DNA of 47,498 nt from Myxococcota bacterium (lineage in GTDB: Bacteria > Myxococcota_C > UBA6777): contig JAKLKB010000074.1 of NCBI GenBank assembly GCA_023150835.1, positions 1 through 47,498 of the forward strand, read 5' to 3'. The notes under the pieces are model-generated. The model saw nothing but the letters and a program-made list of their open reading frames with translations. It did no database searches and had not been told where the DNA came from. Positions 1,679 to 25,882 of this stretch are shown here, piece by piece (position 1 is the first letter of the stretch; every line of letters begins with the position of its first letter). Position numbers and translations under genes: made by a program.

Positions 1679-1830
1679 GTGAACCACCCAAGGAATCAGC
1701 ACTTGGGCTTCCTTTCTGCTTCACAGACGGCAGCGCCAACCCGGTGGGGGTTAGACGTCTTACGCAGTCTCCACAGACATCAAATCGGTGGGTTCCAACC
1801 CTAGAGAAGACAATGCTTGATGGAGCAGAT
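1679..1830 (-). ncRNA. Probable omega RNA (reRNA) at the tnpB 3' end
   Basis: In TnpB elements the guide RNA scaffold overlaps the 3' end of tnpB and ends at the element's right end, with flanking DNA as guide. Here the right end holds a CCCAAG...CTTGGG hairpin ending in GGTTCAC at 1679. By family rules the guide would start AAGAAGTCTCC (1678 downward) and the recognised motif would be TTAC. The 5' limit given is a guess; no transcript evidence exists. Confidence 0.5.
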
Positions 1831-2890: not shown

Positions 2891-2991
2891 CACGACTCTC
2901 ACACGCCTTTTTGTTGTGCGATGTATTGTTCCACCACAATCTTCCATTTGTCAACCCTGAACATGGGCTAAAGCCGCTAAAGCGTATAAAC

Positions 2992-3405: not shown

Positions 3406-6400
3406 TCACAATAATTTTTTGATGCGTTGTCTGTCGTGTTCGAGAAGGGATAGGATCTCTTGTCTGGATGGCAAGGCGCTTGACTCCAGCGCGACGTGAA
3501 AAACGGGGCTTCCTTTCGACCAGAGTTCGACGCTTTCCGTATGTTGATCGAAGTAGGTCGGAGAGGTCGTCACGCGCACTTCTTCGACGTGTTGCAAAGA
3601 ACGATAGCCGACCTCTTCTGGGCCAAGGGTTCTGATCGTCACGCCGTTGGGCATTAGATCGGGTTGTGCCAAGATGCGCTGGAGATCCCGTAGATCATAC
3701 GGTGGAGCAAGGGGTGGCAATTCTTGCCAAGTGTTTTCTAAGATCGCGTCCAAATCAAAACCCTTCTGTTGTAGATCTTCTACCTCTTGTTCAAGGCGAC
3801 GCAAGAGAGATTCCCTTGCGGCTTGTTTTTCTTCGGTGCGTGCAAGCGTCGCCTCTGTGATGCGTTGTGAAACACTCGACAAGATCGGCTGCAAGCGGCC
3901 CACAAACTGTGTGAACAGTTGGATCCGTTCGCGCAAGGCCGCGTACACATCAGACTCCACCGTGTCTTGGTAATGCAGATTCATCACGCGAATACGCGAA
4001 AAGGTTTGCCCCAATCGATCGATCCGACCGATCCGTTGCTCCACGCGCATTGGATTCCAAGGCATATCGTAGTTGATCAGCGCACCGCAGAATTGGAAGT
4101 TGAGTCCTTCTGCCGCTGCATCCGTACACAGCATGATCTCTGCTTTTCCCTGCAAGAAGATCGCCTTGGCTTCGTCGCGTGAGATCTTCACCCAATCCCC
4201 GCTCTCGGTTCGCTGCTCCCCGCCTTCACCGGAAAAGCAAACCACCTTTTGCCCGCTTTCTCCCACCAGATGTTGTCGCAAAAAGCGCATCGTGTCTGTG
4301 TACTGCGTGAACACAATACATTGGGGATAACCGGTTTGTTTGAGGGTTTGGATGCGTTCGTGAAGAGTCCGTGTCTTGGTGTCTGTGGGCAGTTTGCACA
4401 CCATCCGCAACAAACGCTGGATCTCTTGTTGTTCTTCGAGTTGCAAGACGCGTTGTTGTGCGCCTTCGATCTCATCCGTCCCAAACAGTTCGTCTTGAAA
4501 GCCTTCTTCTTCGACAAATGCCTCCTCCGAAGAGGCCGACGTCGTGCCTTGAAGTCGTTGCAGCCTTCGTTCGAGCGTCTTGCGCAGTGCCTCAAAGCTG
4601 CTCGCCATCCGTCGCCGATAGATGGTCATAATAAAACCTACCGCATTGCGTTCTTTCGCGGTGGCGCGGTTGTACATCTCCGAGATATAACGCTCGACCT
4701 CTTCGTATACCTCGCGCTCCTCGGGCTGCAAGTCGATAAACTGATCTTCGACGTAGCGCGTGGCGATCCGCGCTTTGAGTTTTCCTTCGGTGGCATAACG
4801 CCGCAAGGTCTCCCGCGTATGGCGCGAGATCAAGCAAGAGACCGGCGTGTATCCTCGCATCAAGCGGATCGCTGCGGCTCGTTCGTTGTCAGACCACTTT
4901 GTCCTTGGGGTCGTCGCCTTCTCGCGTAGGGTGTGCAAGAGGCTTTTTCGTCGGATGTTTCCCATCTCGGGCGTCAAGGAACGGGCTTGTTCTTCGCTCA
5001 TCTCCCCCCAATGCTGCTCGGTTGCTCGAAACAGGCGCACCATTGATTCGATCTCTTCTTTTTGCAGATCCGACCGCTCCGCCAACGCAAAAAAACGCTC
5101 GAATTCGCCCCACGTCCACTCCCTCGGAACCCCCAAAAGCTCCAGTAGATCCCATAACTCTTGCGGATGCACTTGCATCGGCGTGGCCGTCAATAACACC
5201 AAACCCTCCGTCCGAAGACGCAAACGACGCATCAACGACAACAATAAGTTGGGCTTGGCTTCTTGACCGCCTCCCGCTACCCCGCTGCGTCGTGCGTGGT
5301 GTGCTTCGTCCAACAGCACCAACGAGTACCGCGCCGCTTCCCGACACAGTTCTTCGCTTCGATCCGTTCGCCGCATCAGTTGGCTTGATACGATCACAAA
5401 CGGTTCTTTGTGCCACGCCGAACGCGAAACCGCACGCCATTTTTCGTGTTGCCCTCGGCTGTCATACCACACCAGATCGCTTCCCGTGTAGATCGGCCAG
5501 TTGAGGTTGAATTTCTCGCGCAGTTCGTACTGCCATTGCCGTGTGACTGCTTTGGGAGCCAAGATCAACGCCCGCTCTAGCTTCCCCGCCAACCACGCCT
5601 GCCGCAACAACAATCCCGCTTCGATGGTCTTGCCCAATCCCACCTCATCGGCGATCAATAGCTTTGGCGGCCACTTTCGATACATCCGCAAAAAGGCTCT
5701 CCTTTGGTGCGGCCACGCTTGGATCGCTGAGGTCACTTCTCCCACATCGTCGCCAATCCCCTCCAACATCGGCCCATGCACGATGATCCCCCATATCACC
5801 CGCTTTCTTTGATCTTCTTGGATGTAGTCCCCTATCGGTTCGTGGCCTATGTTCTGCTCGCTCGTCGGGAGGAGCGTGTCTTCTTTCTGCTCGTCTGGAT
5901 GCGTTGTCTCTGGCACGCCCTCTGTCACCGCGTCTTGTGCTTCAACGCGATGCTGGGCGTCCTTGGTGGGTTGGCTTTGCTCGCCGGCGGCGCTTGGACT
6001 GGCTTCGTCGCTTTGGTGGGCGGCAGCGCTTGGACTGGCTTCGTCGCTTTGGTGGGCGGCGGCGCTTGGACTGGTCTCCTTGCTTTGGTGGGCGGCGGAT
6101 GCTGTCGCTGCTGCGTTGTCTTTTTCCTGATGTGAGGGGGGGGCGACATTGCTTGCGTCTTTGCTCTGTGTGCTTTCGCGCAAGCGTCGGGGGAGTTGTC
6201 CCTCAGGCGGGGCAAATCGCAACAAGCCTTGTTCGAGAGCTTGGCCGACTTCCATCACCAGACAACGCGGCATCTGATCGGCCCAAAGTCGCTCGAAGTG
6301 GGTATCCTCTAGTTGCACCCGTTCATAATCGTTCTGCCACGAACGGAACACATGGATCCCCTCCCAGTTTCCTTGCCATCCTTGCTGAGTTTCGTTGACG

Positions 6401-6900
6401 CTTCCATGAAAGGCCAAACGATCCCCCGCGCTGTCTTCCATCACGCCCGCCTTTTCGTGAAAGATCCGCGTTGTATGCAACACAGGCCGCCGATGCTCAT
6501 CACACGGGATCGCCACCCGCACCGACAACAGTCCCTTCTGGATCATCCATGCCAAGAGTTCCAAACCATCATCTCGGGGATATCGTTCGTGAAACATCGG
6601 CAAAGATTCCCCCCATACCTCGGCCACCGCTTCGTCCAGCTTGCGTTCTCCGCGCTGTATCGCTTCCACGACCGCTTGGTTTAACGTGCAGCCCGTGACG
6701 AGGCGCATCTTGCCTTTTCGTTCCACAAAGGGTTCCAAGCCCCGCGCCACCAAACGCAACGCCCCCGGCGTAAAATACCCCGTCACCCGATCATAACGAC
6801 ACGCCAACGACAACGCCGGCACATAAAAGTCCCGTATCAGGTCGTCTTGCCCCGAATCGTAATACAGCTTCCATTGCATCTCGCGGAGTTTTGGCGTCAC
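3406..6900 (-). CDS. PLD-SNF2 helicase of Hma-like defence locus
   Basis: A 1164-aa DNA helicase with a phospholipase-D-like N-terminus. The PLD-like part (about 10-240) contains RIFHEKAGV (148-150 H-x-K) and FHGSVNET. A linker follows with three 12-aa repeats of HQSDEASPSAAA type (271-306). The SNF2 core has DEVGLGKT (418-425), LLDEAHHAR (DEAH 531-534) and the late motif QRIGRIDRLGQ. The predicted start is GTG at 6900 (GAGG six bases upstream); an ATG seven codons later is possible. It is the last gene of the operon, 33 bases after the methylase stop. In related loci helicase, methylase and ATPase occur together and are thought to act on invading DNA. A single HxK is seen, so nuclease activity would need pairing or is absent. 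Confidence 0.9.
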   Translation of the reverse strand: MTPKLREMQWKLYYDSGQDDLIRDFYVPALSLACRYDRVTGYFTPGALRLVARGLEPFVERKGKMRLVTGCTLNQAVVEAIQRGERKLDEAVAEVWGESLPMFHERYPRDDGLELLAWMIQKGLLSVRVAIPCDEHRRPVLHTTRIFHEKAGVMEDSAGDRLAFHGSVNETQQGWQGNWEGIHVFRSWQNDYERVQLEDTHFERLWADQMPRCLVMEVGQALEQGLLRFAPPEGQLPRRLRESTQSKDASNVAPPSHQEKDNAAATASAAHQSKETSPSAAAHQSDEASPSAAAHQSDEASPSAAGEQSQPTKDAQHRVEAQDAVTEGVPETTHPDEQKEDTLLPTSEQNIGHEPIGDYIQEDQRKRVIWGIIVHGPMLEGIGDDVGEVTSAIQAWPHQRRAFLRMYRKWPPKLLIADEVGLGKTIEAGLLLRQAWLAGKLERALILAPKAVTRQWQYELREKFNLNWPIYTGSDLVWYDSRGQHEKWRAVSRSAWHKEPFVIVSSQLMRRTDRSEELCREAARYSLVLLDEAHHARRSGVAGGGQEAKPNLLLSLMRRLRLRTEGLVLLTATPMQVHPQELWDLLELLGVPREWTWGEFERFFALAERSDLQKEEIESMVRLFRATEQHWGEMSEEQARSLTPEMGNIRRKSLLHTLREKATTPRTKWSDNERAAAIRLMRGYTPVSCLISRHTRETLRRYATEGKLKARIATRYVEDQFIDLQPEEREVYEEVERYISEMYNRATAKERNAVGFIMTIYRRRMASSFEALRKTLERRLQRLQGTTSASSEEAFVEEEGFQDELFGTDEIEGAQQRVLQLEEQQEIQRLLRMVCKLPTDTKTRTLHERIQTLKQTGYPQCIVFTQYTDTMRFLRQHLVGESGQKVVCFSGEGGEQRTESGDWVKISRDEAKAIFLQGKAEIMLCTDAAAEGLNFQFCGALINYDMPWNPMRVEQRIGRIDRLGQTFSRIRVMNLHYQDTVESDVYAALRERIQLFTQFVGRLQPILSSVSQRITEATLARTEEKQAARESLLRRLEQEVEDLQQKGFDLDAILENTWQELPPLAPPYDLRDLQRILAQPDLMPNGVTIRTLGPEEVGYRSLQHVEEVRVTTSPTYFDQHTESVELWSKGSPVFHVALESSALPSRQEILSLLEHDRQRIKKLL

Positions 6901-6933: not shown

Positions 6934-9900
6934 CTATGGCTTCCCAAACAGCCCCAATTGGCGCGGTTTGACCGTGATCTCTCCCAATGCCAAACGCCGC
7001 AGCATCTCCAGTTTCTCGAAGTCCACCGCAAACGCTGCCGCCCCCACAAGTGACTTGCCGCTTTCGTCCTCTTCGTCTTCGTCGTCGGCTTCTGCTCCAC
7101 CCTCCAAGGCTTCGTCTTCCTCTTCCTCCGCTTCTTCCGTCCCCAACGCTGCTTGGAGAGCTTGTTTTTCTTCTTTGACTTGGGCTTGGCTCAGGATCTG
7201 TTGTTCTTTCATGGACGGCGGCACAGGCAAGACTTCCAACACTGCCTCCAACGCATCCAAGAACCGTTGATCTTTGTCCAACTTCATCTTCTCCATCGCT
7301 TCGCGGGCAACCGAAAGGTCTTGTTGGCGTGCCAGTCCCGCCAAGTAATGCAGCGCGTCCAACATCGTGTCTTTGCCATCGTTCGAGCGGAGCTTTTTCT
7401 TTTCCCTTCGCGTCGCGCTGTCCCACAGCATCAAGTTGGAACCCTTCTTCTCCGCGATGTACCCCACGATCTGCGTCTCCAATTCAACGCCCACCACCCG
7501 CGCAAGCTGCATCCCTTCGTCGTAAGGAAACGTCGGCGCTCGAAAGGCATCCCACGCCAACACAAACCACTCCAACACCTTATCCAAGTCAGCGCGGCGC
7601 TCCTTGTTAAAGAGGGAGTCCAATCGCCAGTTCTTGACTTCTGCACGAGCCGCATTCAAGGCATCTTCGGGCGTGACCGCGTAGGGATCTTCACCTTTTT
7701 CGACGTGGGCGCGGGGATTGTCGCGGTAGATATCCGGCCAATGCTTTGCAAACTCCCCCAACGCTCGACCAAAACACGACAAGTACAGATCCACCCCGCC
7801 GATCTCATATCCCTTGAATTCCTCCACGCTTTCGCGGACGCGCTTGCGCACCTTCGGCTCCAGATCCTCCCAAGCGATCTTCTCCCCGTCGGCTTGTTCT
7901 TGCTTCGGGCGGCACACCAAAAAGATCGTACTCTTGGCCGCTGCCTTGTCTTTGATGTGCATGCTGCCTTCGGCTTCGGTGTTGATCGGCCACGATGCCG
8001 TGATCTCAAACCCTGCATTCAACAAGCCTTGGGCCAAGGCATCCCACGCCCCCGTCGCCTTGTGCGTGAACATCAACGTCAAGATCCCGTCCGCCTTCAA
8101 TACCCGCCGACATTCCGCAAAGATATCTTGCATCCGCTGCCGATAATCTTCATACGCCAGCTTCTTTGCCCCCTTCGCTCCCTTGAATTTCGCAGGGTTT
8201 GCCACCGCTTCTTGTTCTTTGTCCGTCAACTCTCTCCAAAACAGATCCGGCAACACATAGCCCGCCGTTCGCTTCAGCCACACATAAAAAAAGTCCGATA
8301 ACTCCGCATACATCACATTGTCATAGTAGGGTGGATCCATCACCACCGCATCCACCGTACCCGCATCCACATGGTATAGCGAGGACGCCGATTGGCAGGT
8401 CACTTCCACCTTCGGCGGCGTCCATCCCTCTTCACCCTCCGTCGTTTGCGCTCGCGCAGCCCGCCCCTGTTCGCTGAACAACTCCCCATTTGCTCCCGTC
8501 TCTCCACCCTCTCCCAACGCCCGATACGCCGCCTTTGCATCCATCCCGGGACGAACCAAACTCATCAATTCCAACACCGCTTTCTTGGTTTGCTCAAACG
8601 CCCAATCGTATCCCATCCCCACGATCAGCGGAGCCATCTCCGCATGAGACCAACAAAACGCAAAGTCGTGTCGGTTGAATGTATTTGCGACCACTTCCCT
8701 TGTTGGCATCCAGACAGACATCCGCGAGTTGTAATTCAGCAGCTTGTCGAGGGCGAAGCCGAGGTAGACAAAGGCGGCTTGGGTGGGTTCGTCGAGGCGT
8801 CCAGCTTCGCGCTCTTCATCGACCAATGCGCGGAAGATCTCGACGCTGGTGACATGACAGAGCAGTTGGCGCGGGGAGAACATATCGCGCCACAGAGGCA
8901 TACCGTAGATGCGGGGGCGTTCATCGTTGACGATCTCGGGAAAGGCTTCGTTGGGAATGCAGTCGAAGGCTTCCCAATGGGGCATTCTTTCAGTGAGGTG
9001 TTGTTGGACGAGGTCTGCCACATCGTCATCGGGTCGTGGTGCGCGGTAATCGCGGATCCATTTTTCGCGGTTGCCAACGAGGGTGCGTTCTTTGAAGACG
9101 ACGGCGAAGAGTTGTTCGCCCATGTGTCCGGCTTGGGCTTGTCGTTTGATCTCGTCGCCGTCGATGTTGGCGCGGCAATCGTCGAAAGGACAACGGGCTG
9201 CGCCGCGCTTGACGGTGCCTTCGGATTGGTGGCTGGCTTTGCGGACGATCTCGAAGCGGCAAACACGCTGCGGGCTGGTCTGGGGCAACAAACGCACGCC
9301 CGTTCCACCCGGAGCCAAGCGCCAGTTCGGTGACAGCGGAACCAAGCCGCTACACTCCGGACAGGTGATCGTCCGCGCCCAGAGATAACCGTCGGGTATG
9401 CAATGTTTTCCTTCGTCTGGAAAAAAAGAGTGAAGCGATTCTCTTACCCTTTGAAGGAAGACAGATGAGAGCCGATCTATGGCCGACACCGTGGCGAAAC
9501 CAACAGACAAAGGAAACTTTAGCGTAGCATCCAAAATAAGCGAAGCAACAGGATTTAAGTCGTTGGCAAAAGTATCTATTCCCAATCGAATCGACTCAAA
9601 CGGGATACTTCCGCCCCCTGCTGTTGGATCAAGAACAACGGGACTCGACGTGCCTAACGTATCCTCAAGCCAGTCTTTTAATGTTCTTTTTTCTGATTCC
9701 GTTGGAGCATAAGAAAATGCACGAGAGTATCCGTAGGCTGCTGCCCCCAAACGGACGCCTGCTTTTGTTGCTGCGTCGATGCGTTTTCGAGAAGCGACGG
9801 GGTCGCCGTGGATGCCGAGGAGGTGGAGAAAGAGATCGTGATCCGCGTTGGCGGGGAGGAGGGAGGCGAGGACAGCAGCGCGGGAGGCGACGAGGGGGCG

Positions 9901-10029
9901 GCGAGCCCACCAGACATGGAGCCGATTGGGAGCGGGGAAAGGGGTCATGGGCGTTCGTTCGCGGAGGCTTTCAAGGCTGAGAGCGGCGATGGGTAGCCAT
10001 TGTTCGATGAGTCGGGGGGAATGGGTCAT
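6934..10029 (-). CDS. DUF1156 (COG1743) adenine-specific DNA methyltransferase
   Basis: A 1031-aa modification enzyme. The N-terminal DUF1156 signature reads RLIEQWLPIAALSLES with LHVWWARRP (about 6-45). The SAM-binding motif is DPTAGGGSIPFES (134-146), with ANDLNPVA next. Cysteine pairs (CPEC at 223-226; CPFDDC at 280-285) suggest a zinc ribbon. The catalytic motif is DPPYYD (565-570), typical of N6-adenine or N4-cytosine amino-methyltransferases. An acidic linker at about 985-1010 precedes the C-terminus. It most likely marks host DNA for the helicase/ATPase partners. The coding strand changes base composition within the gene near 8,700. A 285-bp gap separates it from the GGDEF gene upstream. 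Confidence 0.9.
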   Translation of the reverse strand: MTHSPRLIEQWLPIAALSLESLRERTPMTPFPAPNRLHVWWARRPLVASRAAVLASLLPANADHDLFLHLLGIHGDPVASRKRIDAATKAGVRLGAAAYGYSRAFSYAPTESEKRTLKDWLEDTLGTSSPVVLDPTAGGGSIPFESIRLGIDTFANDLNPVASLILDATLKFPLSVGFATVSAIDRLSSVFLQRVRESLHSFFPDEGKHCIPDGYLWARTITCPECSGLVPLSPNWRLAPGGTGVRLLPQTSPQRVCRFEIVRKASHQSEGTVKRGAARCPFDDCRANIDGDEIKRQAQAGHMGEQLFAVVFKERTLVGNREKWIRDYRAPRPDDDVADLVQQHLTERMPHWEAFDCIPNEAFPEIVNDERPRIYGMPLWRDMFSPRQLLCHVTSVEIFRALVDEEREAGRLDEPTQAAFVYLGFALDKLLNYNSRMSVWMPTREVVANTFNRHDFAFCWSHAEMAPLIVGMGYDWAFEQTKKAVLELMSLVRPGMDAKAAYRALGEGGETGANGELFSEQGRAARAQTTEGEEGWTPPKVEVTCQSASSLYHVDAGTVDAVVMDPPYYDNVMYAELSDFFYVWLKRTAGYVLPDLFWRELTDKEQEAVANPAKFKGAKGAKKLAYEDYRQRMQDIFAECRRVLKADGILTLMFTHKATGAWDALAQGLLNAGFEITASWPINTEAEGSMHIKDKAAAKSTIFLVCRPKQEQADGEKIAWEDLEPKVRKRVRESVEEFKGYEIGGVDLYLSCFGRALGEFAKHWPDIYRDNPRAHVEKGEDPYAVTPEDALNAARAEVKNWRLDSLFNKERRADLDKVLEWFVLAWDAFRAPTFPYDEGMQLARVVGVELETQIVGYIAEKKGSNLMLWDSATRREKKKLRSNDGKDTMLDALHYLAGLARQQDLSVAREAMEKMKLDKDQRFLDALEAVLEVLPVPPSMKEQQILSQAQVKEEKQALQAALGTEEAEEEEDEALEGGAEADDEDEEDESGKSLVGAAAFAVDFEKLEMLRRLALGEITVKPRQLGLFGKP

Positions 10030-10314: not shown

Positions 10315-11004
10315 TTAGGAGAAGGGTTGTTCGCAGATCGGGCAGGACTTGAGTTGTTTGTTTGTTGGGAGGCGGTCAGCAGGGACAGAACAAGAGGTGG
10401 TGGTGTTGCATGTGGGGCAACGTTGGCGGAGAGTTTCGAGTTTTTGAGCGGAAAGCTCTTCCGACCAACCGACACAGCAGCCAGCACCTTGCTGTTTGGC
10501 GATCTGTAAGGCGATCTCTGCACGGGATTTGAGTTCGGGGGGCGATGGAATCTGTGTGCCGTGGTCTGTTGAGGCGTAGCCGAAACTCATACCAAAAAGG
10601 ATGGTTTCTTTTTCGTGGCGAGCAGGAGCTTTGGCGAAGACTTGAGCCTGTTGTATGAAAGCTTGCAATTGCTGTTTGGGGAGCAACAAGGCAAATTCAT
10701 CGCCGCTGATATGGAATGCTCTGATATGCAAGCCGTCCACGAAAAGTGTTTGGAGAATGCGTCCAGCTTGCGCGATGACGGCATCTCCTGCATCGTGTCC
10801 GAATTGGTCGTTGATGCTTTTGAAACCGTTGAGATCGCCACAAACAAGAACATCGGGATGTTGTGGATTGCGCCCGATATTTGTCAGCGCGTCCTGAAAG
10901 GCGAGGTTGTTTTGGAGGGGGGTTTTGTCGTCTTGATAGACGAGTTCAAGGGTTTTTTGGGCGGTTTGGTAGAGTTTGTTCAAGGCTTCTTGGATGTGCT
11001 TCAT
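10315..11004 (-). CDS. GGDEF-domain protein (possible nucleotide cyclase) in defence operon
   Basis: A 229-aa protein that is almost only a GGDEF domain. Expected motifs are in order: DDKTPLQNNLAF (25-36), GDLNGFKSIND with Asp57 and FGHDAGD (68-74), then SGDEF (100-104), LLLP, and GMSFGYAS (138-145). SGDEF is an accepted variant of GGDEF, so metal and substrate ligands look intact. No RxxD inhibitory site precedes it, and no sensor domain or membrane segment is attached. The C-terminus has CPTC (196-199) and CPIC (221-224), a likely zinc ribbon. The ATG at 11004 overlaps the upstream gene's stop as ATGA. The product (c-di-GMP or other) cannot be told from sequence. A GGDEF enzyme between defence genes is unusual. 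Confidence 0.85.
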   Translation of the reverse strand: MKHIQEALNKLYQTAQKTLELVYQDDKTPLQNNLAFQDALTNIGRNPQHPDVLVCGDLNGFKSINDQFGHDAGDAVIAQAGRILQTLFVDGLHIRAFHISGDEFALLLPKQQLQAFIQQAQVFAKAPARHEKETILFGMSFGYASTDHGTQIPSPPELKSRAEIALQIAKQQGAGCCVGWSEELSAQKLETLRQRCPTCNTTTSCSVPADRLPTNKQLKSCPICEQPFS

Positions 11005-11432
11005 GCGAGGTTCCACTGGCTTTTTTGGATGGATTGGAGTTTTTGGGGAAGTTGGACGTAGACGAGATCGCCAAAGAGCCAATCTTCGAGGTTTTCCACA
11101 TTCCATCCTTCGGCTTGTGGTGCTTGGCTGCGGAGCGTCCAAAAGCTCCCGCCGTAATCAAACAAGACTTCGGCGATGTAGGGGCCGCGTCGGTAGAATT
11201 CGATCATCTGGCATCCGGCGCGTTCGAGTTCTTGTTGGAGGGCGACGGTAAGAGGGAGAGGTTCGTCATTTGCGGCGGCATGTCCGAAGAATCCGCCAGC
11301 GAGAGCGCCGACGGGGTGGCGCGTGAGAGCAAGACCAGCGAGAGCGCCAAGAAGTGCTGCGCCGCTTTTTTGATCGCGGCGTGGTCGGGGTTCGCGGTAA
11401 GGGACGTTGGTTGGATAGGTGACTTGGGTCAT
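11001..11432 (-). CDS. Small hypothetical protein with hydrophobic glycine-rich segment
   Basis: A 143-aa protein I cannot assign to a family. Residues 10-22 are proline/arginine-rich. Residues 24-52 are hydrophobic and rich in Gly and Ala (GAALLGALAGLAL and GALAGGFFGHAAA), resembling a glycine-zipper or one to two short membrane spans. The soluble C-terminus (60-143) has aromatic residues such as FDYGGSFWTL and LEDWLFGDLVYV. GAGGAGG lies upstream of the ATG at 11432. Its stop overlaps the start of the GGDEF gene, so the two are probably translationally coupled. By position it could be a membrane partner or effector of the GGDEF protein; that is inference. Confidence 0.75.
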   Translation of the reverse strand: MTQVTYPTNVPYREPRPRRDQKSGAALLGALAGLALTRHPVGALAGGFFGHAAANDEPLPLTVALQQELERAGCQMIEFYRRGPYIAEVLFDYGGSFWTLRSQAPQAEGWNVENLEDWLFGDLVYVQLPQKLQSIQKSQWNLA

Positions 11433-11512: not shown

Positions 11513-12061
11513 TTAGTGTGTTTCGTTGAGAAGGATGCGAAGGGCTTTGAGGACGCGACGAGGTTTGGGTCGGTGCATGGCCATGCCGAGCCAGTAGGAG
11601 ACTTCTTGTTTGGACATGGCCTCGATACCTTGGAGACATTGGCGCATGAGATCGCGGTTGCGCATGGGGGCGAGTATACGGAAGACAAGGCCGAGAAGGA
11701 GGGCGGTGTGTTCGGAGAGAGGAAAGGAGGCGCGTTGTTGGGAGGTGAGGTGATCGGTTTCGATGCGGTCGATGCTCCAGATCTGGCGGAGTTGTGGATA
11801 AAAATAGCGGAGGGAGCGTCCAGAGAGTCCAGCGATGCGGACAGGTTCGGCGAGGTTGGGGGTGAGAGAAGAAGGAAGCTGCCAGATCTCCATGCGCTGT
11901 TCGAGGGAGGTCATTTGCCAGACGCGGAGTTCAAAGAGGACTTGGGTGGTAGCGATCTTCGCGTTGTTTCGGCGGGTGGGGGGTTTGCGTGGAGGTTGTG
12001 AGGGTGGGTTGGTCTCGATGGTATCGGGGAGGGTTGGAGAGGTGTTGTGTTTTTTGAGCAT
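11513..12061 (-). CDS. Hypothetical 182-aa protein in defence operon
   Basis: No family recognised with confidence. The first 40 residues are rich in Pro, Thr and Asn and look disordered. The rest looks like a compact helical domain: VLFELRVWQM, then LSGRSLRYFYPQLRQIW, FPLSEHTALLLGLVFRILAPMR, and MSKQEVSYWLGMAMHR near the end, finishing with a basic helix. No signal or membrane segment. It begins at ATG 12061, 58 bases after the ATPase stop and 80 bases before the 143-aa gene, so it belongs to the same transcript. It may be a structural or DNA-binding partner of the ATPase. Confidence 0.75.
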   Translation of the reverse strand: MLKKHNTSPTLPDTIETNPPSQPPRKPPTRRNNAKIATTQVLFELRVWQMTSLEQRMEIWQLPSSLTPNLAEPVRIAGLSGRSLRYFYPQLRQIWSIDRIETDHLTSQQRASFPLSEHTALLLGLVFRILAPMRNRDLMRQCLQGIEAMSKQEVSYWLGMAMHRPKPRRVLKALRILLNETH

Positions 12062-12119: not shown

Positions 12120-15100
12120 TCAAGTGTCTTTGGTGGAAACGGTCAAGGATATCTTGCATTTGTTAGGGGTGACTTTTTCGAGTGGGCGGATACGGGCAGA
12201 GAAGGCTTGTGGATCAGGGAGGGGTAAGGGGGTGGAGAAGTCAAAGGAAAAGGTGGCGTTGATCTCGACCTCTGCGCGTCGTTGGCTTTGTAGGCTTTGC
12301 AAGAAGGGGAGGACGCTGCGGATATCGTCGGGATGGCCTTCAAAAGAGAGGATGCCTTCGCTGTTATTGGGTTTGGCGTAGAAGGTGGCGCGGAATTCGA
12401 GGTGGGGAGAGGCGTCTTTGAAGACGTTGGAGGATTGTGTGAGCCATTGTGTAAAGTCGGGGAGGTGAAAGAGTTGGCAAGAGAAAGAGCGGATGGAACG
12501 GGCTTTGCGTTGTTGGAGGGATTGTTCGAGGAAGCGCAGTATTTCAGGGAGATTGTTTTCGTGGTCGAGGGTGAAGGTCTCGGGCGTGAAGATTCGGCTG
12601 GTTGGAGGCGGCGTGATCTCGTCGTCTTCTGGGGGTGGAGGGGTTTTTCCTGCGGATGTTTCTTTGGGGGGGGGGATGACACGGGGCCAGAGAGCGGTTT
12701 CTTCGGCTTTTTTGAGGGTGTAGAGGAATGCGTTTTCATCGATACGGATGGCGGCGGAGGGGTCGCCCGGGCCGTAGGTGAGGTCGTCGTAGCGGTAGAC
12801 AAGGAGGTTGTCTTCAATGCCTTTGCGGATGGAGGCAAGGAAGGTGTTGTCGTCGAGAAGGAAGGGGAGTTTGGGGTTTTTGTAGAATTGGTTGCGGAGA
12901 TCGGAAGTGGAGGCCGTGCCGCGTTGTGCGAGGGTGGTTTTGTGGATCAGGAGGTTGGGAGCGGGTGGGTGATCGGTGGGGAAGTAGAGATGGTTGCAGT
13001 CTTTGAGGGCTTGGGTGATGGCTTCTTGTCCTTTGCCGGGCTTGTTGGAGGATTGGCTTTTTCCGGCGAGGTTGACGTGTGTGAGCCAGAGTCCGTCTTC
13101 GAGGGGATCGGAAGCGGAGGGATAGAAGAGGTGGCGGTATGCGTTTTGGATGGCGAGAGTGCAATCGTTGGAAGATTTGTCGTAATCTTCTTTGACTTTT
13201 TTTTGCTGGTGTGGGGAGAGGTCTTTGAGTTTGTCGGGGGTGTTGAGTGCGCGGAGGGCAAGGTGGCGTTTGATGGCGTCTTTCATTTCGGAGACTTTGT
13301 TTTTGTCAGCGAGCAAGAAGACAAGGTGGTTTTGGAGTTGTCGGAAGTTTTTGTTTGTGCCGGCATGGAGGAAGATATCGCGGACGCGGGCGGGGATTTT
13401 GGGTGTGGAGTCGGTGGTATGGGAAAAGGGTACGGTATCGTAATTCATAAGGAGTAGGCGGGGTTTGTTGCGATTGGGGTCATCGGGAACGTCGGAGGGA
13501 TCGCCGGGAAAGGAGAGGGTATCGAGGGTTGGAGGTTTGGAGAAGGTGGTTTCGATGTGATCGTCGAGTTCTTTGGTGATGGCTTCTTCGGAGAGGTGTG
13601 ATTCTTCTTGTCGGATGATCTGGTTGAGGTTGGCTTCGGAGAGGAAAGAGAGGGGTTTGTGGGGGTCGTCGTTGAGGTAGGCTGCTTGGTTTTGGAATTT
13701 GTGGAGGGCGTCTTTGAGGAAGGCGCTGTCATGGGAGGGTGCGAGGGCAGCGAAGGTGAGTTGTTCGGGGGAGAGACCGCGTAAGTTGTTGTTGAAGGCG
13801 AGGGTGTGCCAAAAGATGGTGCGTGCGACGTGGGAGGCGTAGGGAGGCATGGCGGGAAATTGATATTGTTCGCGGTCGAGGATTTGTGCGAGGGCATCGG
13901 CGGAGAAGAGGGGTTGGTTTGTGTCGCGGTAGTGGGAGATATCTTTTCGGATGGCGGGTTCGTAGTGTTGGAGTTGAAGGCGGGTGAGGATCTCAGCGCG
14001 GATGGGTTCGTGTCCGGGGTCGATGTGGTGGGGATGGAGGGCGAAGGTGTGATTGGGTTTGTTTTGCCAGAGTTGGGAGACAGCGCGAGAGAGCAAGCGC
14101 AACATACCGCGAACGCGTTGAAAAGTGCTAAAGGTGGAGAGTTTGTCTTTGAGGATGTGCATAAGATCGGGGTGGAAGGGATAATCGCGGAGAAAGCGAG
14201 CGTGGAGATCAGGTTCGGAGCCATCGGACTTGGCGAAGACTTGGCGCATCTTTTCGTCGAGTTGTTCTTTTTTCCAAAGCGCAGTGTAGGCTTTGACGAT
14301 CTGCGCGGCTTTTTTTGTGTCGATGGAGGAGAAGAGGCGTTTTTGGAGGACGAGGGCGGTTTCATCGGTGGAAGTGGGTTCAAGGAGGGTGGCTTTTCGT
14401 GCGGAGACGCTTTCGAGTTCTTCAAATTCTTTGGCGATGGCGGTGTTTTCGTCGTTGTAGGCATCGGAGCCTTTGAGATCTTTGCCGACGGCGAGGGAAA
14501 AGATGAGGGCAGTTTGGGGTGTGCCTTCGATGGCTTTGAAGAGGGAAGAGAGGAAGGGGGCGAATTGTGCGCTTTGCTTGTGGCCTTTTACGCGGCGGAG
14601 GTAGATGGCCATTTCATCGAGCAGGATGATGGAGGGTTGGGTTTTCAGGAGAGCGGCGAATGTTTCTGCACCGGGTGCGGTGTGGGAGACGTCGCTTTCT
14701 TTGAAAGCGCTGTAGCCGTCGATCCCGGCGAGTTGATAGGCAAGGAAGCCCCAAGGGGTGTAGATTTTGATGCCATCGCGGGTGATGCCGTTGGTGGGGT
14801 CGGCGTTTTCGCCATCGAAGGCTGCGACGCGAGCGGGTTGTTTGGGAAGGAGAGAGGGGTCGAGAAAGTCGGAGGGGTTGGGGACGCCGCGCATACCGTT
14901 GGCGGCGTGGTAGAGAGCGATGAGTCCGTGAGTTTTACCGCCGCCGAACTGCGTATCAAGGCGAAAGATAGAAGAGACTTCTTGGGCGGAGCCTTGGAGT
15001 CGAAGGAGGACTTGTTTGAGGAGGGTTTTTAAGCCTTGGGTGGGGTGGGTTTGGGAGAAGAAGCGCTGTGGATCAAGGTATTCGGGTATGGCTGAACCAT

Positions 15101-15209
15101 CGATAACTTTGGAAAGGTCAGCGGCGAGAGATTCATCGCGGAGGGTTGAAGCGAGGACGTCTGCGCGAGGCGTACAGGCGTCGAAAAGGGTGGGGGGGTG
15201 TTGGCTCAT
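12120..15209 (-). CDS. DUF499 (COG1483) AAA-type ATPase of Hma-like defence locus
   Basis: A 1029-aa ATPase and the first gene of the operon. The start ATG at 15209 has AGGAG seven bases upstream. The N-terminus (LFDACTPRADVL) and FRLDTQFGGGKTHGLIALYH (Walker A GGGKT at 89-93) are hallmarks of DUF499 proteins. Walker B is IILLDEMAIYL (195-200). A long helical middle follows, then a proline-rich hinge (TPPPPEDDEITPPP, about 860-890) and a C-terminal domain. DUF499 ATPases are found beside DUF1156 methylases and PLD helicases in archaea and bacteria and are predicted antiviral components. The coding strand is strongly C- and A-rich. Confidence 0.9.
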   Translation of the reverse strand: MSQHPPTLFDACTPRADVLASTLRDESLAADLSKVIDGSAIPEYLDPQRFFSQTHPTQGLKTLLKQVLLRLQGSAQEVSSIFRLDTQFGGGKTHGLIALYHAANGMRGVPNPSDFLDPSLLPKQPARVAAFDGENADPTNGITRDGIKIYTPWGFLAYQLAGIDGYSAFKESDVSHTAPGAETFAALLKTQPSIILLDEMAIYLRRVKGHKQSAQFAPFLSSLFKAIEGTPQTALIFSLAVGKDLKGSDAYNDENTAIAKEFEELESVSARKATLLEPTSTDETALVLQKRLFSSIDTKKAAQIVKAYTALWKKEQLDEKMRQVFAKSDGSEPDLHARFLRDYPFHPDLMHILKDKLSTFSTFQRVRGMLRLLSRAVSQLWQNKPNHTFALHPHHIDPGHEPIRAEILTRLQLQHYEPAIRKDISHYRDTNQPLFSADALAQILDREQYQFPAMPPYASHVARTIFWHTLAFNNNLRGLSPEQLTFAALAPSHDSAFLKDALHKFQNQAAYLNDDPHKPLSFLSEANLNQIIRQEESHLSEEAITKELDDHIETTFSKPPTLDTLSFPGDPSDVPDDPNRNKPRLLLMNYDTVPFSHTTDSTPKIPARVRDIFLHAGTNKNFRQLQNHLVFLLADKNKVSEMKDAIKRHLALRALNTPDKLKDLSPHQQKKVKEDYDKSSNDCTLAIQNAYRHLFYPSASDPLEDGLWLTHVNLAGKSQSSNKPGKGQEAITQALKDCNHLYFPTDHPPAPNLLIHKTTLAQRGTASTSDLRNQFYKNPKLPFLLDDNTFLASIRKGIEDNLLVYRYDDLTYGPGDPSAAIRIDENAFLYTLKKAEETALWPRVIPPPKETSAGKTPPPPEDDEITPPPTSRIFTPETFTLDHENNLPEILRFLEQSLQQRKARSIRSFSCQLFHLPDFTQWLTQSSNVFKDASPHLEFRATFYAKPNNSEGILSFEGHPDDIRSVLPFLQSLQSQRRAEVEINATFSFDFSTPLPLPDPQAFSARIRPLEKVTPNKCKISLTVSTKDT

Positions 15210-15392
15210 TGGATTCTCCTGACGGACGCGAGATGGAGGGGTTGCAAAGGGCGCGTTGATGAAGAGATAAAGAGGCCCAGAGATCGGGGATCTTTACGGC
15301 GAAGTGGGTTCGCTGTAGAACAAAGACTCCATTGACGGATGTATACCCGAAACGAAGCAGCGGCACAAAAAGAAAAGCAAGGAGCGCAGAAG
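15210..15392. promoter_or_regulatory. Divergent intergenic region between ATPase operon and EVE gene
   Basis: Only 183 bases separate two divergent starts, so promoters for both should lie here, and one regulator could control both units. I find no convincing -35/-10 pair on either strand. A TTGACG at about 15334 on the plus strand has no good -10 at 16-18 bases. Confidence 0.45.
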
Positions 15393-15869
15393 ATGCAACA
15401 TTGGTTGTTGATGTTCCGACCCGATACGTACGGAAAAGTGCGAGAGCATGGGAAGATTGGAGTTCGGGAAGGCGCGAGAAAGCGGCTATCGGGGATGAAA
15501 ACGGGGGATCGGTTTGTGACGTATTTATCGCGAGTGCAGTTGTTGGATGGGTATGGTGAGATCACAAGCGAGGTATTCGAGGAAGATACGCTGATCTTTG
15601 CTTCGGACAAGCTGTATCCGTACCGTTGCCGTGTGGCGTTTGACAAGGTGGGTGCGGAAGTTCCGGTGGGTGATATCTTGTGGTTTTTGGATGCGTTTGA
15701 GGGGTTGAGTACGACGACGCCGACCAACATCATGTTTTGCAAGGGCGGGGTGATGGAGATCAGCAAGAAAGATTACGAGACGTTGTTGGATATGATCCAA
15801 CATCCGCCCAAGTCGGGCAAGAGCAACACCGCAGCATACCGCACCCACGAGAAAAGGCACACCGCGTAG
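15393..15869 (+). CDS. EVE-domain protein (modified-base reader family)
   Basis: A 158-aa protein that is a nearly complete EVE domain (2-133). It opens MQHWLLMFRPDTYG and continues with GARKRLSGMKTGDRFVTYL, LLDGYGEITSE and YPYRCRVAF, the strand pattern of the PUA/EVE fold. EVE domains bind modified bases in DNA and are common next to restriction and other defence genes. AGGAG lies ten bases before the ATG at 15393; an open extension to 15339 has no site. It faces away from the ATPase operon across a shared intergenic region, consistent with a role in sensing modified DNA. The C-terminal 25 residues are polar and probably disordered. Confidence 0.88.
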   Translation: MQHWLLMFRPDTYGKVREHGKIGVREGARKRLSGMKTGDRFVTYLSRVQLLDGYGEITSEVFEEDTLIFASDKLYPYRCRVAFDKVGAEVPVGDILWFLDAFEGLSTTTPTNIMFCKGGVMEISKKDYETLLDMIQHPPKSGKSNTAAYRTHEKRHTA

Positions 15870-16091: not shown

Positions 16092-16325
16092 CCTGTGATT
16101 GGGCAGCAACAGGGGGCTGCCCCATGCTCGCGGCACTGATGAAACGTTCGGGATACACCTGTGACTGGGCAGCAACAGGGGGCTGCCCCATGCTCGCGGC
16201 ACTGATGAAACGTTCGGGATACACCTGTGATTGGGCAGCAACAGGGGGCTGCCCCATGCTCGCGGCACTGATGAAACGTTCGGGATACACCTGTGATTGG
16301 GCAGCCACAGGGGGCTGCCCCTACT
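16092..16325. repeat. 66-bp tandem repeat with internal hairpin, 3.5 units
   Basis: Units start CCTGTGATTGGGCAGC at 16092, 16158, 16224 and 16290; the last is partial and runs into GCCCCTAC. Each contains GGGCAGC-AACAGGG-GGCTGCCC, a stable hairpin, followed by a constant CATGCTCGCGGCACTGATGA segment. The same hairpin core ends the 26-bp array near 1550. Because 66 is divisible by 3, all frames are open across it, but none is a plausible gene. Confidence 0.92.
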
Positions 16326-16478: not shown

Positions 16479-16779
16479 AAGACGGAGGGTACGACATCCG
16501 TGTCTGGTGTGATCAAAAGGGTGGGGCGTATTGCATACGCCCTTGCCCCATTCACGGAGATTTTGCTCGCTGTGTACGAGCAGGCAACCTGCGGATTTGG
16601 TATGACGCCGTGGAAAAGGGAAAGCGTGAAGAATCAACCCGTTGTAGGGGCGGTTCGCGAACCGCCCGCGCCTGAATTTCCCCGTTGGCCGGGGGGAATG
16701 AGGGGGGCCGAAAAAAGAAAAAGTTGGCGTTTCTGCGCTCGCTGTTCTTGCGAAGAGTATGGAGGAGGGCGTATATAAA
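16479..16779. other. Gene-free stretch with hairpins
   Basis: No credible gene is seen between the repeat cluster and the tRNA terminator. The stretch holds GGCGTATTGCATACGCC (about 16527-16543) and GGGCGGTTCGCGAACCGCCC (16648-16667), both perfect or near-perfect palindromes of the REP type. Short open frames here lack ribosome sites and protein-like composition. Confidence 0.6.
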
Positions 16780-16890: not shown

Positions 16891-16963
<73 letters not shown>

Positions 16964-22972: not shown

Positions 22973-25882
22973 ATGCAAGCCTTCATCAAGAATCGTTTTT
23001 TTCGGTCGCTCCCCATGCGGATGGGTTTGTGTTTCCTGCTTTTGAGCCTTCCCGCTTTCTCGTTGTTTCTCGGATGCGGTGAATGCCGCAATGATAGCGA
23101 TTGTCCATCGACTTCTCTTTGCACAGAAGGCGCATGTGTCGAAAAAAACCAACCCCCTGTGCGCCGCCCCCCCGGCTCGGAGTGCGTAGACAGCGAGCGC
23201 CGCGCTTGTTACAACGGACCCACCAAGACCCAAAGCATCGGCATCTGCAAAGCTGGTCAACAGACTTGCCAAAACGGCCAATGGAGCGCGTGTGCGGGAG
23301 AAGTGACGCCCGCTGAAAAAGAAGAATGTGATGGCGTAGACAACAACTGCGACGGCCAAGTCGACGAAGGCTGCACTTGCAAAAACGGCGACAAACAAGC
23401 CTGTTATACAGGAAGTGCCGAAACACGCGCCAAAGGCGAATGCAAAGACGGCGAACAGATCTGCATCAACGGACTCTGGGGCGAATGCTTGCAACAGACC
23501 CTTCCCCAAGCCGAAGTATGCGACGGCAAAGACAACGATTGCAACGGAAAAATCGACGACGACGTCAAAAAAAGCTGCCAATCACAGTGCGGACTCGGCG
23601 AAGAGATCTGCCAAAACGGCCAATTCCAACCCTGCAACGCACGCACTCCAAGCCCCGAAAAATGCGGCGACAACATCGACAACGATTGCAACGGCTCCAC
23701 CGACGAAGGCTGTGAGTGTGCCCCCAGTACCTCCCGCGATTGCTACACAGGCCCTCCAAGCACCCAAGGCGTCGGCCCTTGCACCCAAGGCAAACAGACC
23801 TGTAGCGCCGATGGCAAGTGGCAAAGCTGCACAGGGCAAGTTACCCCCCAAGTCGAGCAATGCAACCGCAAAGATGACGATTGCAACGGGCGTATCGACG
23901 ACAACTTGACCCGTCCCTGTCAACGCGGTTGCAATACCGGCAAAGAAACCTGTAGCGATGGAACATGGAAAGCCTGTGATGCAAAAGCCGCAGATGCCGA
24001 AGTATGCGACGGGAAAGACAACGACTGCGACGGAAAAACCGACAACTTGGTCGGTGGTGGCACTTGTGAATGCCTTGTCGGACAAAAAGAATTCTGCTAT
24101 GACGGCCCCGCAAACACCGCAGGTATCGGCCTTTGCGCACGCGGTGAACGGATCTGCCAGTCCACAGGCAAGTGGTCTCCTTGCCTCAACCAGATCACCC
24201 CATCACCCGAGATCTGCGACGGCAAAGACAACAACTGTGACGGACAAGTCGACAACAACACCACCGGCGGAAAACTCGACCGCGATTGTTACGATGGGCC
24301 CGCAGGAACCGATCAACGTGGCGTCTGCAAAAAAGGCAAAGAGACCTGCAACAACGGGGTCTGGAGTGTATGCGTCGGACAGATCAAGCCCACCACCGAG
24401 ATCTGCGACAACAAAGACAACAACTGCGACGGCAAAATCGATGAAGGCGTCTCACGCGATTGTTATAGTGGACCCGCAGGGACCGAAGGCACAGGTATCT
24501 GTAAAAAAGGCTTGCAAACCTGTACGGCGGGTGTTTGGGGGGCTTGCCTTGGCGAAGTCGCCCCGCGCACCGAGGTCTGCAACAACCTTGACGACGATTG
24601 CAACGGCGTCAAAGACGACAAAGGCGCTTGTGACGTCTGCCAAAGCGGTCAGAGCCAAGCCTGCTATACAGGCCCCCAAAGCACCCGAAACACCCTCCCT
24701 TGCAAAGAAGGCACCTCCACCTGCATCAACGGTCAATGGGGTACTTGCACAGGCGAAGTTAAACCGATCTCCGAGACCTGCAACAACAAAGACGATGATT
24801 GCGACGGAAACATCGACAACGGCATAACGCGGCCCTGCTCGAACAACTGCGGCACAGGCACAGAAACCTGCTCCGCTGGGACATGGATCAACTGCAACGC
24901 CCCCAAACCAACCACCGAGATCTGCAACAACAAAGACGACGACTGCAACGGCCAGATCGACGATGGTCTCTCCTGCACCATCCTCGCGACGGGAGATATC
25001 GCAGGAACCGCGATCCTCTGGAACCCCTTTACTCGCACCAAGCTCCAAACCATCGCCAGTCAAGCCGAGATCTACGTCATCGCCTTTAGCCCCGACAAAC
25101 AATCCTTTGCCGTCGGAAACACCAACCAAGTCGAACTTCGTTATGCGGCCACAGGCGTCCGCTATCGCACCCTCAATTTCACAGGGATCGCCCGATCGAT
25201 CGCGTGGTCCAAAGACAGCACCCGCATCGCCGTCGGAACCAGCGCAGGAACCGCCACCATCTGGAATGCCACCACAGGCGCGATTATCCGCAGCGGCCTT
25301 ACGCATCCCTATACTGTGCGCGGCCTTGCCTTTCACCCCACCCAAGACCTGCTTCTCTCCACCAGCGACAACATCGTCTACTTCTGGAATCCCACTACAG
25401 GCGCACAGATCCGCCAAACCCCCGTCACCTTCACCATCTACGCCCTTGACCTCAGCCCCGATGGAAACTCCTTCTTGATCGGCGGATACCACGTCAGCAA
25501 CATCTATCCCGGTTTCCTCCAACTCTGGGATATCACCAACACCAGCGCCCCCACCCAAAAACTCTCCTTTACCGTCCCCGCCATCGTGTACAACTCGCGC
25601 TTTAGCCACGATGGAACGCACGTTATCGCTGCATACCTCGATGGCACCAGCGTTTGGCGTGTCCAAACTCAACAAAAAGTCGCCGAGATCAAACTTCCCG
25701 GACATTGGGTCTATACCGCCGATCTCACTCCCGACAACAAAACCCTCGCCGCCGGCGCTCGCACCAACGCCGCACTCAACGGCATCCTCTTCTTGTGGGA
25801 TATCTCTCAAAGTCCGCCCGTTGAACTCCTTAAAAACACCGATCACACCCGCTATCTCTGGGGAATGGACTTCCGCCCCTAA
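22973..25882 (+). CDS. MopE-type motif and WD40 repeat lipoprotein
   Basis: A 969-aa exported protein. The signal peptide ends FLGC (lipobox near residue 27-30). Residues 35-665 contain ten MopE-like metal-binding motifs such as ECDGVDNNCDGQVDEG and VCDGKDNDCNGKIDDD, alternating with cysteine-rich modules of form CYTGPxxTxGxGxCKxGxQTC. The rest (668-969) is a WD40 propeller: ATGDIAGTAILWNPFT, VYFWNPTTGAQIR, LFLWDI and others. The Asp/Asn-rich motifs probably bind Ca or Cu. Many Myxococcota surface proteins use these motifs, but joining them to a propeller is unusual. GAGG lies 6 bases before ATG 22973. It is probably anchored in the outer membrane as a binding scaffold. Confidence 0.88.
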   Translation: MQAFIKNRFFRSLPMRMGLCFLLLSLPAFSLFLGCGECRNDSDCPSTSLCTEGACVEKNQPPVRRPPGSECVDSERRACYNGPTKTQSIGICKAGQQTCQNGQWSACAGEVTPAEKEECDGVDNNCDGQVDEGCTCKNGDKQACYTGSAETRAKGECKDGEQICINGLWGECLQQTLPQAEVCDGKDNDCNGKIDDDVKKSCQSQCGLGEEICQNGQFQPCNARTPSPEKCGDNIDNDCNGSTDEGCECAPSTSRDCYTGPPSTQGVGPCTQGKQTCSADGKWQSCTGQVTPQVEQCNRKDDDCNGRIDDNLTRPCQRGCNTGKETCSDGTWKACDAKAADAEVCDGKDNDCDGKTDNLVGGGTCECLVGQKEFCYDGPANTAGIGLCARGERICQSTGKWSPCLNQITPSPEICDGKDNNCDGQVDNNTTGGKLDRDCYDGPAGTDQRGVCKKGKETCNNGVWSVCVGQIKPTTEICDNKDNNCDGKIDEGVSRDCYSGPAGTEGTGICKKGLQTCTAGVWGACLGEVAPRTEVCNNLDDDCNGVKDDKGACDVCQSGQSQACYTGPQSTRNTLPCKEGTSTCINGQWGTCTGEVKPISETCNNKDDDCDGNIDNGITRPCSNNCGTGTETCSAGTWINCNAPKPTTEICNNKDDDCNGQIDDGLSCTILATGDIAGTAILWNPFTRTKLQTIASQAEIYVIAFSPDKQSFAVGNTNQVELRYAATGVRYRTLNFTGIARSIAWSKDSTRIAVGTSAGTATIWNATTGAIIRSGLTHPYTVRGLAFHPTQDLLLSTSDNIVYFWNPTTGAQIRQTPVTFTIYALDLSPDGNSFLIGGYHVSNIYPGFLQLWDITNTSAPTQKLSFTVPAIVYNSRFSHDGTHVIAAYLDGTSVWRVQTQQKVAEIKLPGHWVYTADLTPDNKTLAAGARTNAALNGILFLWDISQSPPVELLKNTDHTRYLWGMDFRP

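What the first reader, a model, noticed from the sequence alone, without database searches (positions are those of the whole stretch)
15210..15869. EVE modified-base reader divergent from the ATPase gene
The EVE gene and the operon share a 183-bp divergent region. EVE domains bind modified bases. Placed beside a DNA methylase system it could sense the system's own mark, hypermodified phage DNA, or act as a regulator of the operon.
Basis: partly seen in the sequence, partly recalled or inferred. Interest (0 to 1): 0.55.

Follow-up and report, generated by a model that had tools for sequence, protein, structure and literature searches.

The report
Modified-base reader beside methylation defence operon
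A small protein of a family known to recognise chemically modified bases sits back-to-back with a methylation-based antiviral operon; most related operons lack it, but its closest known relative is the first gene of a related antiviral operon in a distant bacterium, so it is probably an optional sensor and not a chance neighbour.

Summary
In detail: a 158-aa EVE-domain gene (15393-15869, +) lies divergent from a DUF499 ATPase gene, 183 bp between start codons, both with good ribosome-binding sites. The operon is a DUF499–DUF7680–DUF1156 methylase–PLD/SNF2-helicase system of the known Hma / "BREX-related" kind. EVE next to such systems is already published for archaea (Bell 2020), and I reproduced that linkage. 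But EVE is not a standard part of this branch: 0 of 92 related operon loci carry one. The wider EVE class in a Chloroflexi-type phylum sits mostly beside non-defence genes. In a same-genus relative the synteny ends 130 bp left of the tRNA-Glu gene and both EVE and operon are missing, so they are on one variable segment. The decisive lead is the closest relative found (45% identity, unrelated genome): it is the first gene of a type III BREX operon, 10 nt before brxF. The two proteins share a signature and lack base-loop residues conserved in other EVEs. Most likely this is an optional, exchangeable reader for BREX-superfamily ATPase complexes, with a pocket tuned to something other than the usual ligand. 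Ligand, interaction and regulation are unshown. Verdict: new variant of a known kind; moderate interest.

The parts
15393..15869 (+). EVE-domain gene, 158 aa (P0001); divergent subfamily with motifs FRPDT, GVRE, FEEDTLIFA, NxxxCxGGxM
15210..15392 (.). 183-bp divergent intergenic region between EVE and DUF499 start codons; no significant promoter or operator signal
12120..15209 (-). DUF499 AAA+ ATPase (HmaC-like), 1029 aa
   Evidence: Pfam DUF499 127.7 bits; PADLOC HmaC 323.9 bits
11513..12061 (-). DUF7680 protein, 182 aa, fourth core gene of this branch
   Evidence: PF24728 125.6 bits; present in 70 of 92 related loci
11001..11432 (-). 143-aa ORF rich in Gly/Ala near the N-terminus, no Pfam match; insert in the operon
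10315..11004 (-). GGDEF-domain protein (motif SGDEF), 229 aa, start overlaps the stop of the previous ORF; insert in the operon
   Evidence: PF00990 77.9 bits; sequence
6934..10029 (-). DUF1156 DNA methyltransferase (HmaB-like), DPPY at residue 565
3406..6900 (-). SNF2 helicase with N-terminal PLD-like region (HmaA/PbeA/BrxH-like), DEAH at residue 531
16760..16760 (.). left end of 91-93% synteny with the same-genus genome G001; everything left of it, EVE and operon included, is absent there
16891..16963 (-). tRNA-Glu beside which the variable segment lies

Best explanation
The EVE protein is an optional reader subunit of a BREX-superfamily defence system. Proposed working: the DUF1156 methylase marks host DNA; the DUF499 ATPase, with DUF7680, assembles on DNA and licenses the PLD/SNF2 helicase; the EVE protein samples DNA for a modified base in its PUA-like pocket and passes that state to the ATPase complex, widening or gating attack on modified phage DNA. 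Shown: the gene, its family, its placement on the same variable segment as the operon, the published and reproduced archaeal linkage, and a closest relative that heads a type III BREX operon. Inferred: base binding by this protein, contact with the ATPase, the direction of the signal and the base read. Its pocket loops differ from other EVEs of its class, so I expect a ligand other than plain 5mC.
For: Closest relative found: 44-45% identity, E 4e-37, against 1e-9 for the next of 7 non-self hits in 386 genomes. It is the first gene of a type III BREX operon, its stop 10 nt before the brxF ATG, followed by BrxC (DUF6079), a YhcG nuclease, PglXI methylase and BrxHII helicase. Type III BREX is reported as the closest BREX type to DUF499 systems (PMC12839542, passages). 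In three archaeal loci EVE abuts the DUF499 gene (L313, L315, L316), so in the window, G959 and these three the EVE lies at the ATPase end. Archaeal EVE-DUF1156 pairs within 15 kb: 8 seen against 0.77 expected among 28 genomes holding both. EVE and operon are gained or lost together at this site. EVE domains flip and bind 5mC/5hmC in VcaM4I (PMC7897488, abstract and passages). Both subfamily members lack the Asn that 78 of 80 class relatives have at position 12, and other conserved positions.
Against: 0 of 92 related operon loci carry an EVE, and of 67 upstream genes from the 49 loci with enough upstream sequence none of the families shown was EVE. None of 6 plasmid type III BREX loci has one. 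The window EVE is on the opposite strand, not co-transcribed. The subfamily rests on two proteins. In the Chloroflexi-type phylum the broader EVE class is not linked to DUF1156 beyond chance (1 pair within 16 kb against 0.22 expected, P 0.2). No binding or interaction data exist.
Confidence: 0.5

Rival explanations
1. Regulator: the EVE protein controls expression of the operon from the divergent region, for example by sensing methylation of the shared promoter, in the place that WYL (BrxR) regulators hold in some BREX operons.
For: Divergent arrangement with 183 bp. In G959 the EVE holds the slot before brxF that a WYL gene holds in 2 of 6 plasmid type III BREX loci. BrxR is described as a BREX regulator (PMC9122589, search listing only).
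Against: No helix-turn-helix or other family besides EVE detected; no operator-like repeat beyond chance; archaeal EVEs sit on the coding strand next to DUF499 without a divergent promoter.
Confidence: 0.2
2. Passenger: EVE is an unrelated neighbour that shares a tRNA-side variable segment with the operon.
For: 0 of 92 related operons have it; opposite strand; the segment abuts a tRNA pair and differs between relatives; in 40 Chloroflexi-type loci EVE lies mostly next to non-defence genes.
Against: The closest relative heads a type III BREX operon at 10-nt spacing, hard to square with chance; archaeal linkage.
Confidence: 0.25
3. RNA-side role: EVE binds modified tRNA or other RNA and serves the host or an abortive response, unrelated to DNA marks.
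For: EVE domains are described as primarily known for RNA biology (PMC7897488, passage); tRNA-Glu and tRNA-Lys genes lie 1 kb away.
Against: The tRNA genes belong to the conserved side of the breakpoint and are present without EVE in relatives; the closest relative is in a DNA-methylation operon.
Confidence: 0.05

Closest known systems
Archaeal COG1743–DUF499–SWI2/SNF2-nuclease systems with standalone EVE (Bell, Wolf and Koonin 2020, PMC7641849)
   Same: Same four kinds of gene, EVE next to the DUF499 gene (reproduced).
   Different: Described in archaea; in L313, L315, L316 EVE is co-directional with DUF499 and no DUF7680 is found. Here the host is placed with bacteria by inference, EVE is divergent, DUF7680 is present, and the EVE shares only 21-24% identity with archaeal ones.
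Hma system / Type-2 BREX-related (BR) system (PMC12839542; PADLOC Hma)
   Same: DUF499 ATPase, DUF1156 methylase, helicase with N-terminal PLD-like region.
   Different: DUF7680 in place of DUF3780; scores far under the NCBIfam equivalog cut-offs; EVE is not listed as a part in the passages read.
Type III BREX with an EVE first gene (G959, locus L328)
   Same: EVE of the same subfamily (45%) beside the ATPase end of a methylase-helicase defence operon.
   Different: BrxF and DUF6079 BrxC in place of DUF499/DUF7680; EVE co-directional, 10 nt from brxF.
EVE-HNH endonuclease VcaM4I
   Same: EVE domain as modified-base sensor for defence (PMC7897488).
   Different: There EVE is fused to the nuclease and reads 5mC/5hmC; here it stands alone and its conserved loops differ.

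Membership tests
EVE domain (PF01878) | score over Pfam's curated cut-off | tested here: met
   24.3 against 23 bits, narrow; profile-profile probability 98.8 with other EVEs
EVE domain (PF01878) | residues conserved in its class (W4, G38, D39, Y44, S59, P76, R78, D127) | tested here: met
   all kept
EVE domain (PF01878) | other class-conserved positions (N12, R27, E73, H111) | tested here: not met
   T, G, K, T in the window; T, A, Q, A in G959. These mark a class, not the whole family, so membership by score stands.
EVE domain (PF01878) | five-strand PUA core plus sixth strand | tested here: inconclusive
   single-sequence model unusable, mean pLDDT 31
EVE domain (PF01878) | binding of a modified base | not testable with these tools
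   needs a binding assay
Hma / DUF499-centred BR system | DUF499 ATPase + DUF1156 methylase + SNF2 helicase in one operon | tested here: met
Hma / DUF499-centred BR system | NCBIfam equivalog cut-offs for the three antiphage proteins | tested here: not met
   196.8 of 1200, 232.9 of 1000, 396 of 1100 bits
Type-2 BR system | N-terminal HKD (PLD) region in the helicase | tested here: inconclusive
   PLDc_2 22.4 bits, under its cut-off 27; PbeA match to residues 5-256; strict HxKx4D motif absent, HEKAGVMED with GSVN seen
Type-2 BR system | standalone DUF3780 (98% of taxa in PMC12839542) | tested here: not met
   DUF7680 instead; no DUF3780 match at E up to 10 for that protein nor among the eight proteins
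Type III BREX | DUF6079 BrxC and BrxF | tested here: not met
   window ATPase matches DUF499/HmaC; BrxC only 19 bits; no BrxF among the proteins scanned
Archaeal EVE–DUF499 operon | EVE in the same direction as and abutting DUF499 | tested here: not met
   divergent, 183 bp apart

The most novel reading that the evidence does not exclude
A distinct EVE subfamily (FRPDT … FEEDTLIFA … NxxxCxGGxM) is an exchangeable sensor cassette of the BREX superfamily, moving between type III BREX and DUF499/DUF7680 systems, with a pocket re-tuned to a base other than 5mC. It would let methylation-marking defences also detect modified phage DNA, which otherwise escapes them.
Probability: 0.3. Interest if true: 0.65.

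Novelty: new variant of a known kind. Interest (0 to 1): 0.42.

Why it matters
BREX-type systems attack DNA that lacks their mark, so phages with modified bases could slip past. A separable reader found beside both BREX and DUF499 systems would suggest how such defences widen their reach, and gives a small protein with a clear binding test. The linkage to type III BREX did not appear in the passages I read of the two main surveys, nor in the listings of four searches of the open library.

Tried and rejected
Sought and not found: relatives of P0001 or of the G959 EVE in viral contigs and in phages. On plasmids the only match was a distant Thermococcus EVE with no DUF499 gene annotated among the 24 features shown.

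EVE as a fixed part of this operon branch: rejected, 0 of 92 loci L020-L111 (80 genome, 6 viral, 6 plasmid) at E up to 10 with three EVE profiles. Only 49 of the 70 loci with DUF7680 had 900 bp or more before DUF499, so absence at that exact site is tested in 49.

Operator in the divergent region: not better than shuffles. Integration into the tRNA-Glu 3' end: no 18-base copy of the tRNA elsewhere in the window. Structure: single-sequence model unusable, so no fold search was run. Foreign origin by composition: EVE GC3 0.68 is like its neighbours.

Results against my reading: the tree of 119 EVEs puts P0001 on a long branch, 2.5 or more substitutions per site from everything in that tree, with weak support for its place (G959 was not in that tree). 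In the Chloroflexi-type set there is no excess linkage. One EVE of 40 there lies 2.5 kb from a type III BREX with other genes between; I count it as weak. Of the 8 archaeal pairs, 6 show DUF499 and/or methylase genes by profile; L317 shows none and L314 only a helicase; P for 6 or more is 1.5e-4 and for 8 or more 1.5e-6. The pairs were read off by eye, with the 15-kb limit set while reading.

Own slips: the GGDEF query was out of frame, redone. An earlier count said 64 of 80 genome loci have DUF7680; the right count is 60 of 80 (70 of 92, less 4 viral and 6 plasmid).

Full report
OBSERVATION. The gene at 15393-15869 (+) encodes 158 aa and passes Pfam's EVE cut-off narrowly (24.3 against 23 bits). 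A profile of it with relatives matches solved EVE proteins (MJECL36 3e-50, PH1033 3e-48, PSPTO5229 9e-4), though archaeal members carry much of that score; P0001 alone reaches 0.003 with PH1033. Its two-member alignment aligns to other EVEs with probability 98.8. Both divergent start codons have good ribosome-binding sites and lie 183 bp apart. It is the only EVE in the 7.56-Mb genome.

NEIGHBOURS. On the minus strand: DUF499 ATPase, DUF7680, a 143-aa ORF, a GGDEF protein, DUF1156 methylase with DPPY, and an SNF2 helicase with a PLD-like N-terminus. PADLOC matches are HmaC 324, HmaB 230 and HmaA 179 bits; NCBIfam equivalog cut-offs are not reached. The 2026 survey calls such sets BREX-related systems and its Type-2 has DUF3780 (PMC12839542, passages and section 30 read). 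Here DUF7680 takes that place, and DUF3780 was not found. In 92 related loci, 70 hold DUF7680, so DUF499–DUF7680–methylase–helicase is a well-marked branch; no paper in the library names DUF7680.

SITE. The window is the whole contig. The same-genus genome G001 aligns at 91-93% from 16760 rightwards, through the tRNA-Glu/tRNA-Lys pair and the RNase E/G gene, and its contig end is reached at window 32097. Left of 16760 it has other genes. G001 has neither EVE nor DUF499 matches anywhere in its assembly, which is 86% complete. Of the 5 genomes held for the phylum, 1 has EVE and 2 a DUF499 match, the other weak. So EVE and operon occupy one variable segment.

IS EVE PART OF THIS OPERON BRANCH? 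A methylase alignment found 80 genome loci; with 6 viral and 6 plasmid loci that makes 92. Three EVE profiles, including one built round P0001, hit none at E up to 10. Immediately upstream of DUF499 the genes are mixed: 67 genes from the 49 loci with enough sequence were scanned (of 98 listed) and the families most often matched were in 2 members only; 25 of 62 matched families were shown. So EVE is not a fixed part.

WHERE DO RELATED EVEs LIE? In 400 genomes of the phylum of L061 (titled Chloroflexi), 64 have a P0001-like EVE at E up to 0.01. I fetched 40 of the 66 places: recurring neighbours look by eye like oxidoreductase, sigma/anti-sigma and ABC-transporter genes, with tmRNA in 3 of 21 loci scanned. 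20 genomes also have DUF1156 and one pair lies within 16 kb (0.22 expected). One further EVE, L205, lies 2.5 kb from a type III BREX with other genes between.

POSITIVE CONTROL. In 294 genomes of the archaeal phylum of L099, 92 have EVE and 72 DUF1156. Among 28 with both, 8 pairs lie within 15 kb against 0.77 expected (P 1.5e-6; 6 pairs with the operon's own ATPase and/or methylase profiles, P 1.5e-4). In L313, L315 and L316 EVE abuts DUF499 in the same direction. This agrees with Bell 2020 (section 9 read), who proposed that EVE discriminates modified foreign DNA (passage).

THE LEAD. A census of 386 genomes, mostly spread over the domain, gave 7 non-self hits; one stands apart (44%, E 4e-37; next 1e-9). 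In that genome, G959, the EVE gene is followed after 10 nt by brxF, then BrxC/DUF6079 (PADLOC BrxC 2014 bits), a YhcG nuclease, a four-helix ORF, PglXI methylase, a PHP/AAA protein, a Schlafen-type protein and BrxHII helicase at the contig edge ('PHP' and 'four-helix' are my reading of the sequence; PADLOC's model name for the helicase match is BrxHI, with BrxHII second). The survey names type III BREX as the nearest BREX type to DUF499 systems. None of 6 plasmid type III BREX loci has EVE; two have a WYL gene in that slot.

POCKET. Both members keep W4, G38-D39, Y44, S59, P76, R78 and D127 but replace N12 (Asn in 78 of 80 class relatives) by Thr, and also change positions 27, 73 and 111; both have Cys at 116 where Phe is commonest. 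The Trp invariant in A5 is not kept. In VcaM4I residues 10, 11, 15, 22, 24, 82 and 130 contact the flipped base. That position 12 lies in the matching loop is my inference; no structure was obtained.

MECHANISM. I commit to an optional reader working with the ATPase complex (0.5), over a passenger (0.25), a regulator (0.2) and an RNA-side role (0.05). The operon's predicted mark is N6-methyladenine (by family, PMC12839542), whereas the EVE with a DNA-bound structure in the paper I read takes 5mC/5hmC; so reading modified phage DNA seems likelier than reading the operon's own mark, but neither is shown.

LIMITS.

Noticed in passing
window 11513-12061 and loci L020-L111: DUF7680 marks a branch of DUF499/DUF1156 systems: 60 of 80 genome loci, 6 of 6 plasmid and 4 of 6 viral loci. 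No paper in the library names it, and the 2026 survey's main text does not contain the term.
   Followed up: partly
window 10315-11432: A GGDEF (SGDEF) protein and a Gly/Ala-rich ORF with overlapping stop and start are inserted between DUF7680 and the methylase; no homologue of either in any of the other loci held.
   Followed up: partly
L033, L035-L040, L042, L070, L076, L078: Gaps of roughly 1 to 9 kb between core genes, mostly between DUF7680 and the methylase or between methylase and helicase, suggest a slot for exchangeable cargo genes.
   Followed up: no
window 16092-16321: 66-bp tandem repeat (three to four copies) between the EVE gene and tRNA-Glu, in the part not shared with G001.
   Followed up: no
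L205 (Chloroflexi-type genome): EVE 2.5 kb from a type III BREX start, with genes that look by eye like macro-domain and TIR-type genes between.
   Followed up: partly
window 1760-2947: TnpB-type gene at the far end of the operon, beyond the helicase.
   Followed up: no
window 22973-25882: Large protein with MopE-type copper-binding motifs and WD40 repeats, on the conserved side of the breakpoint.
   Followed up: no
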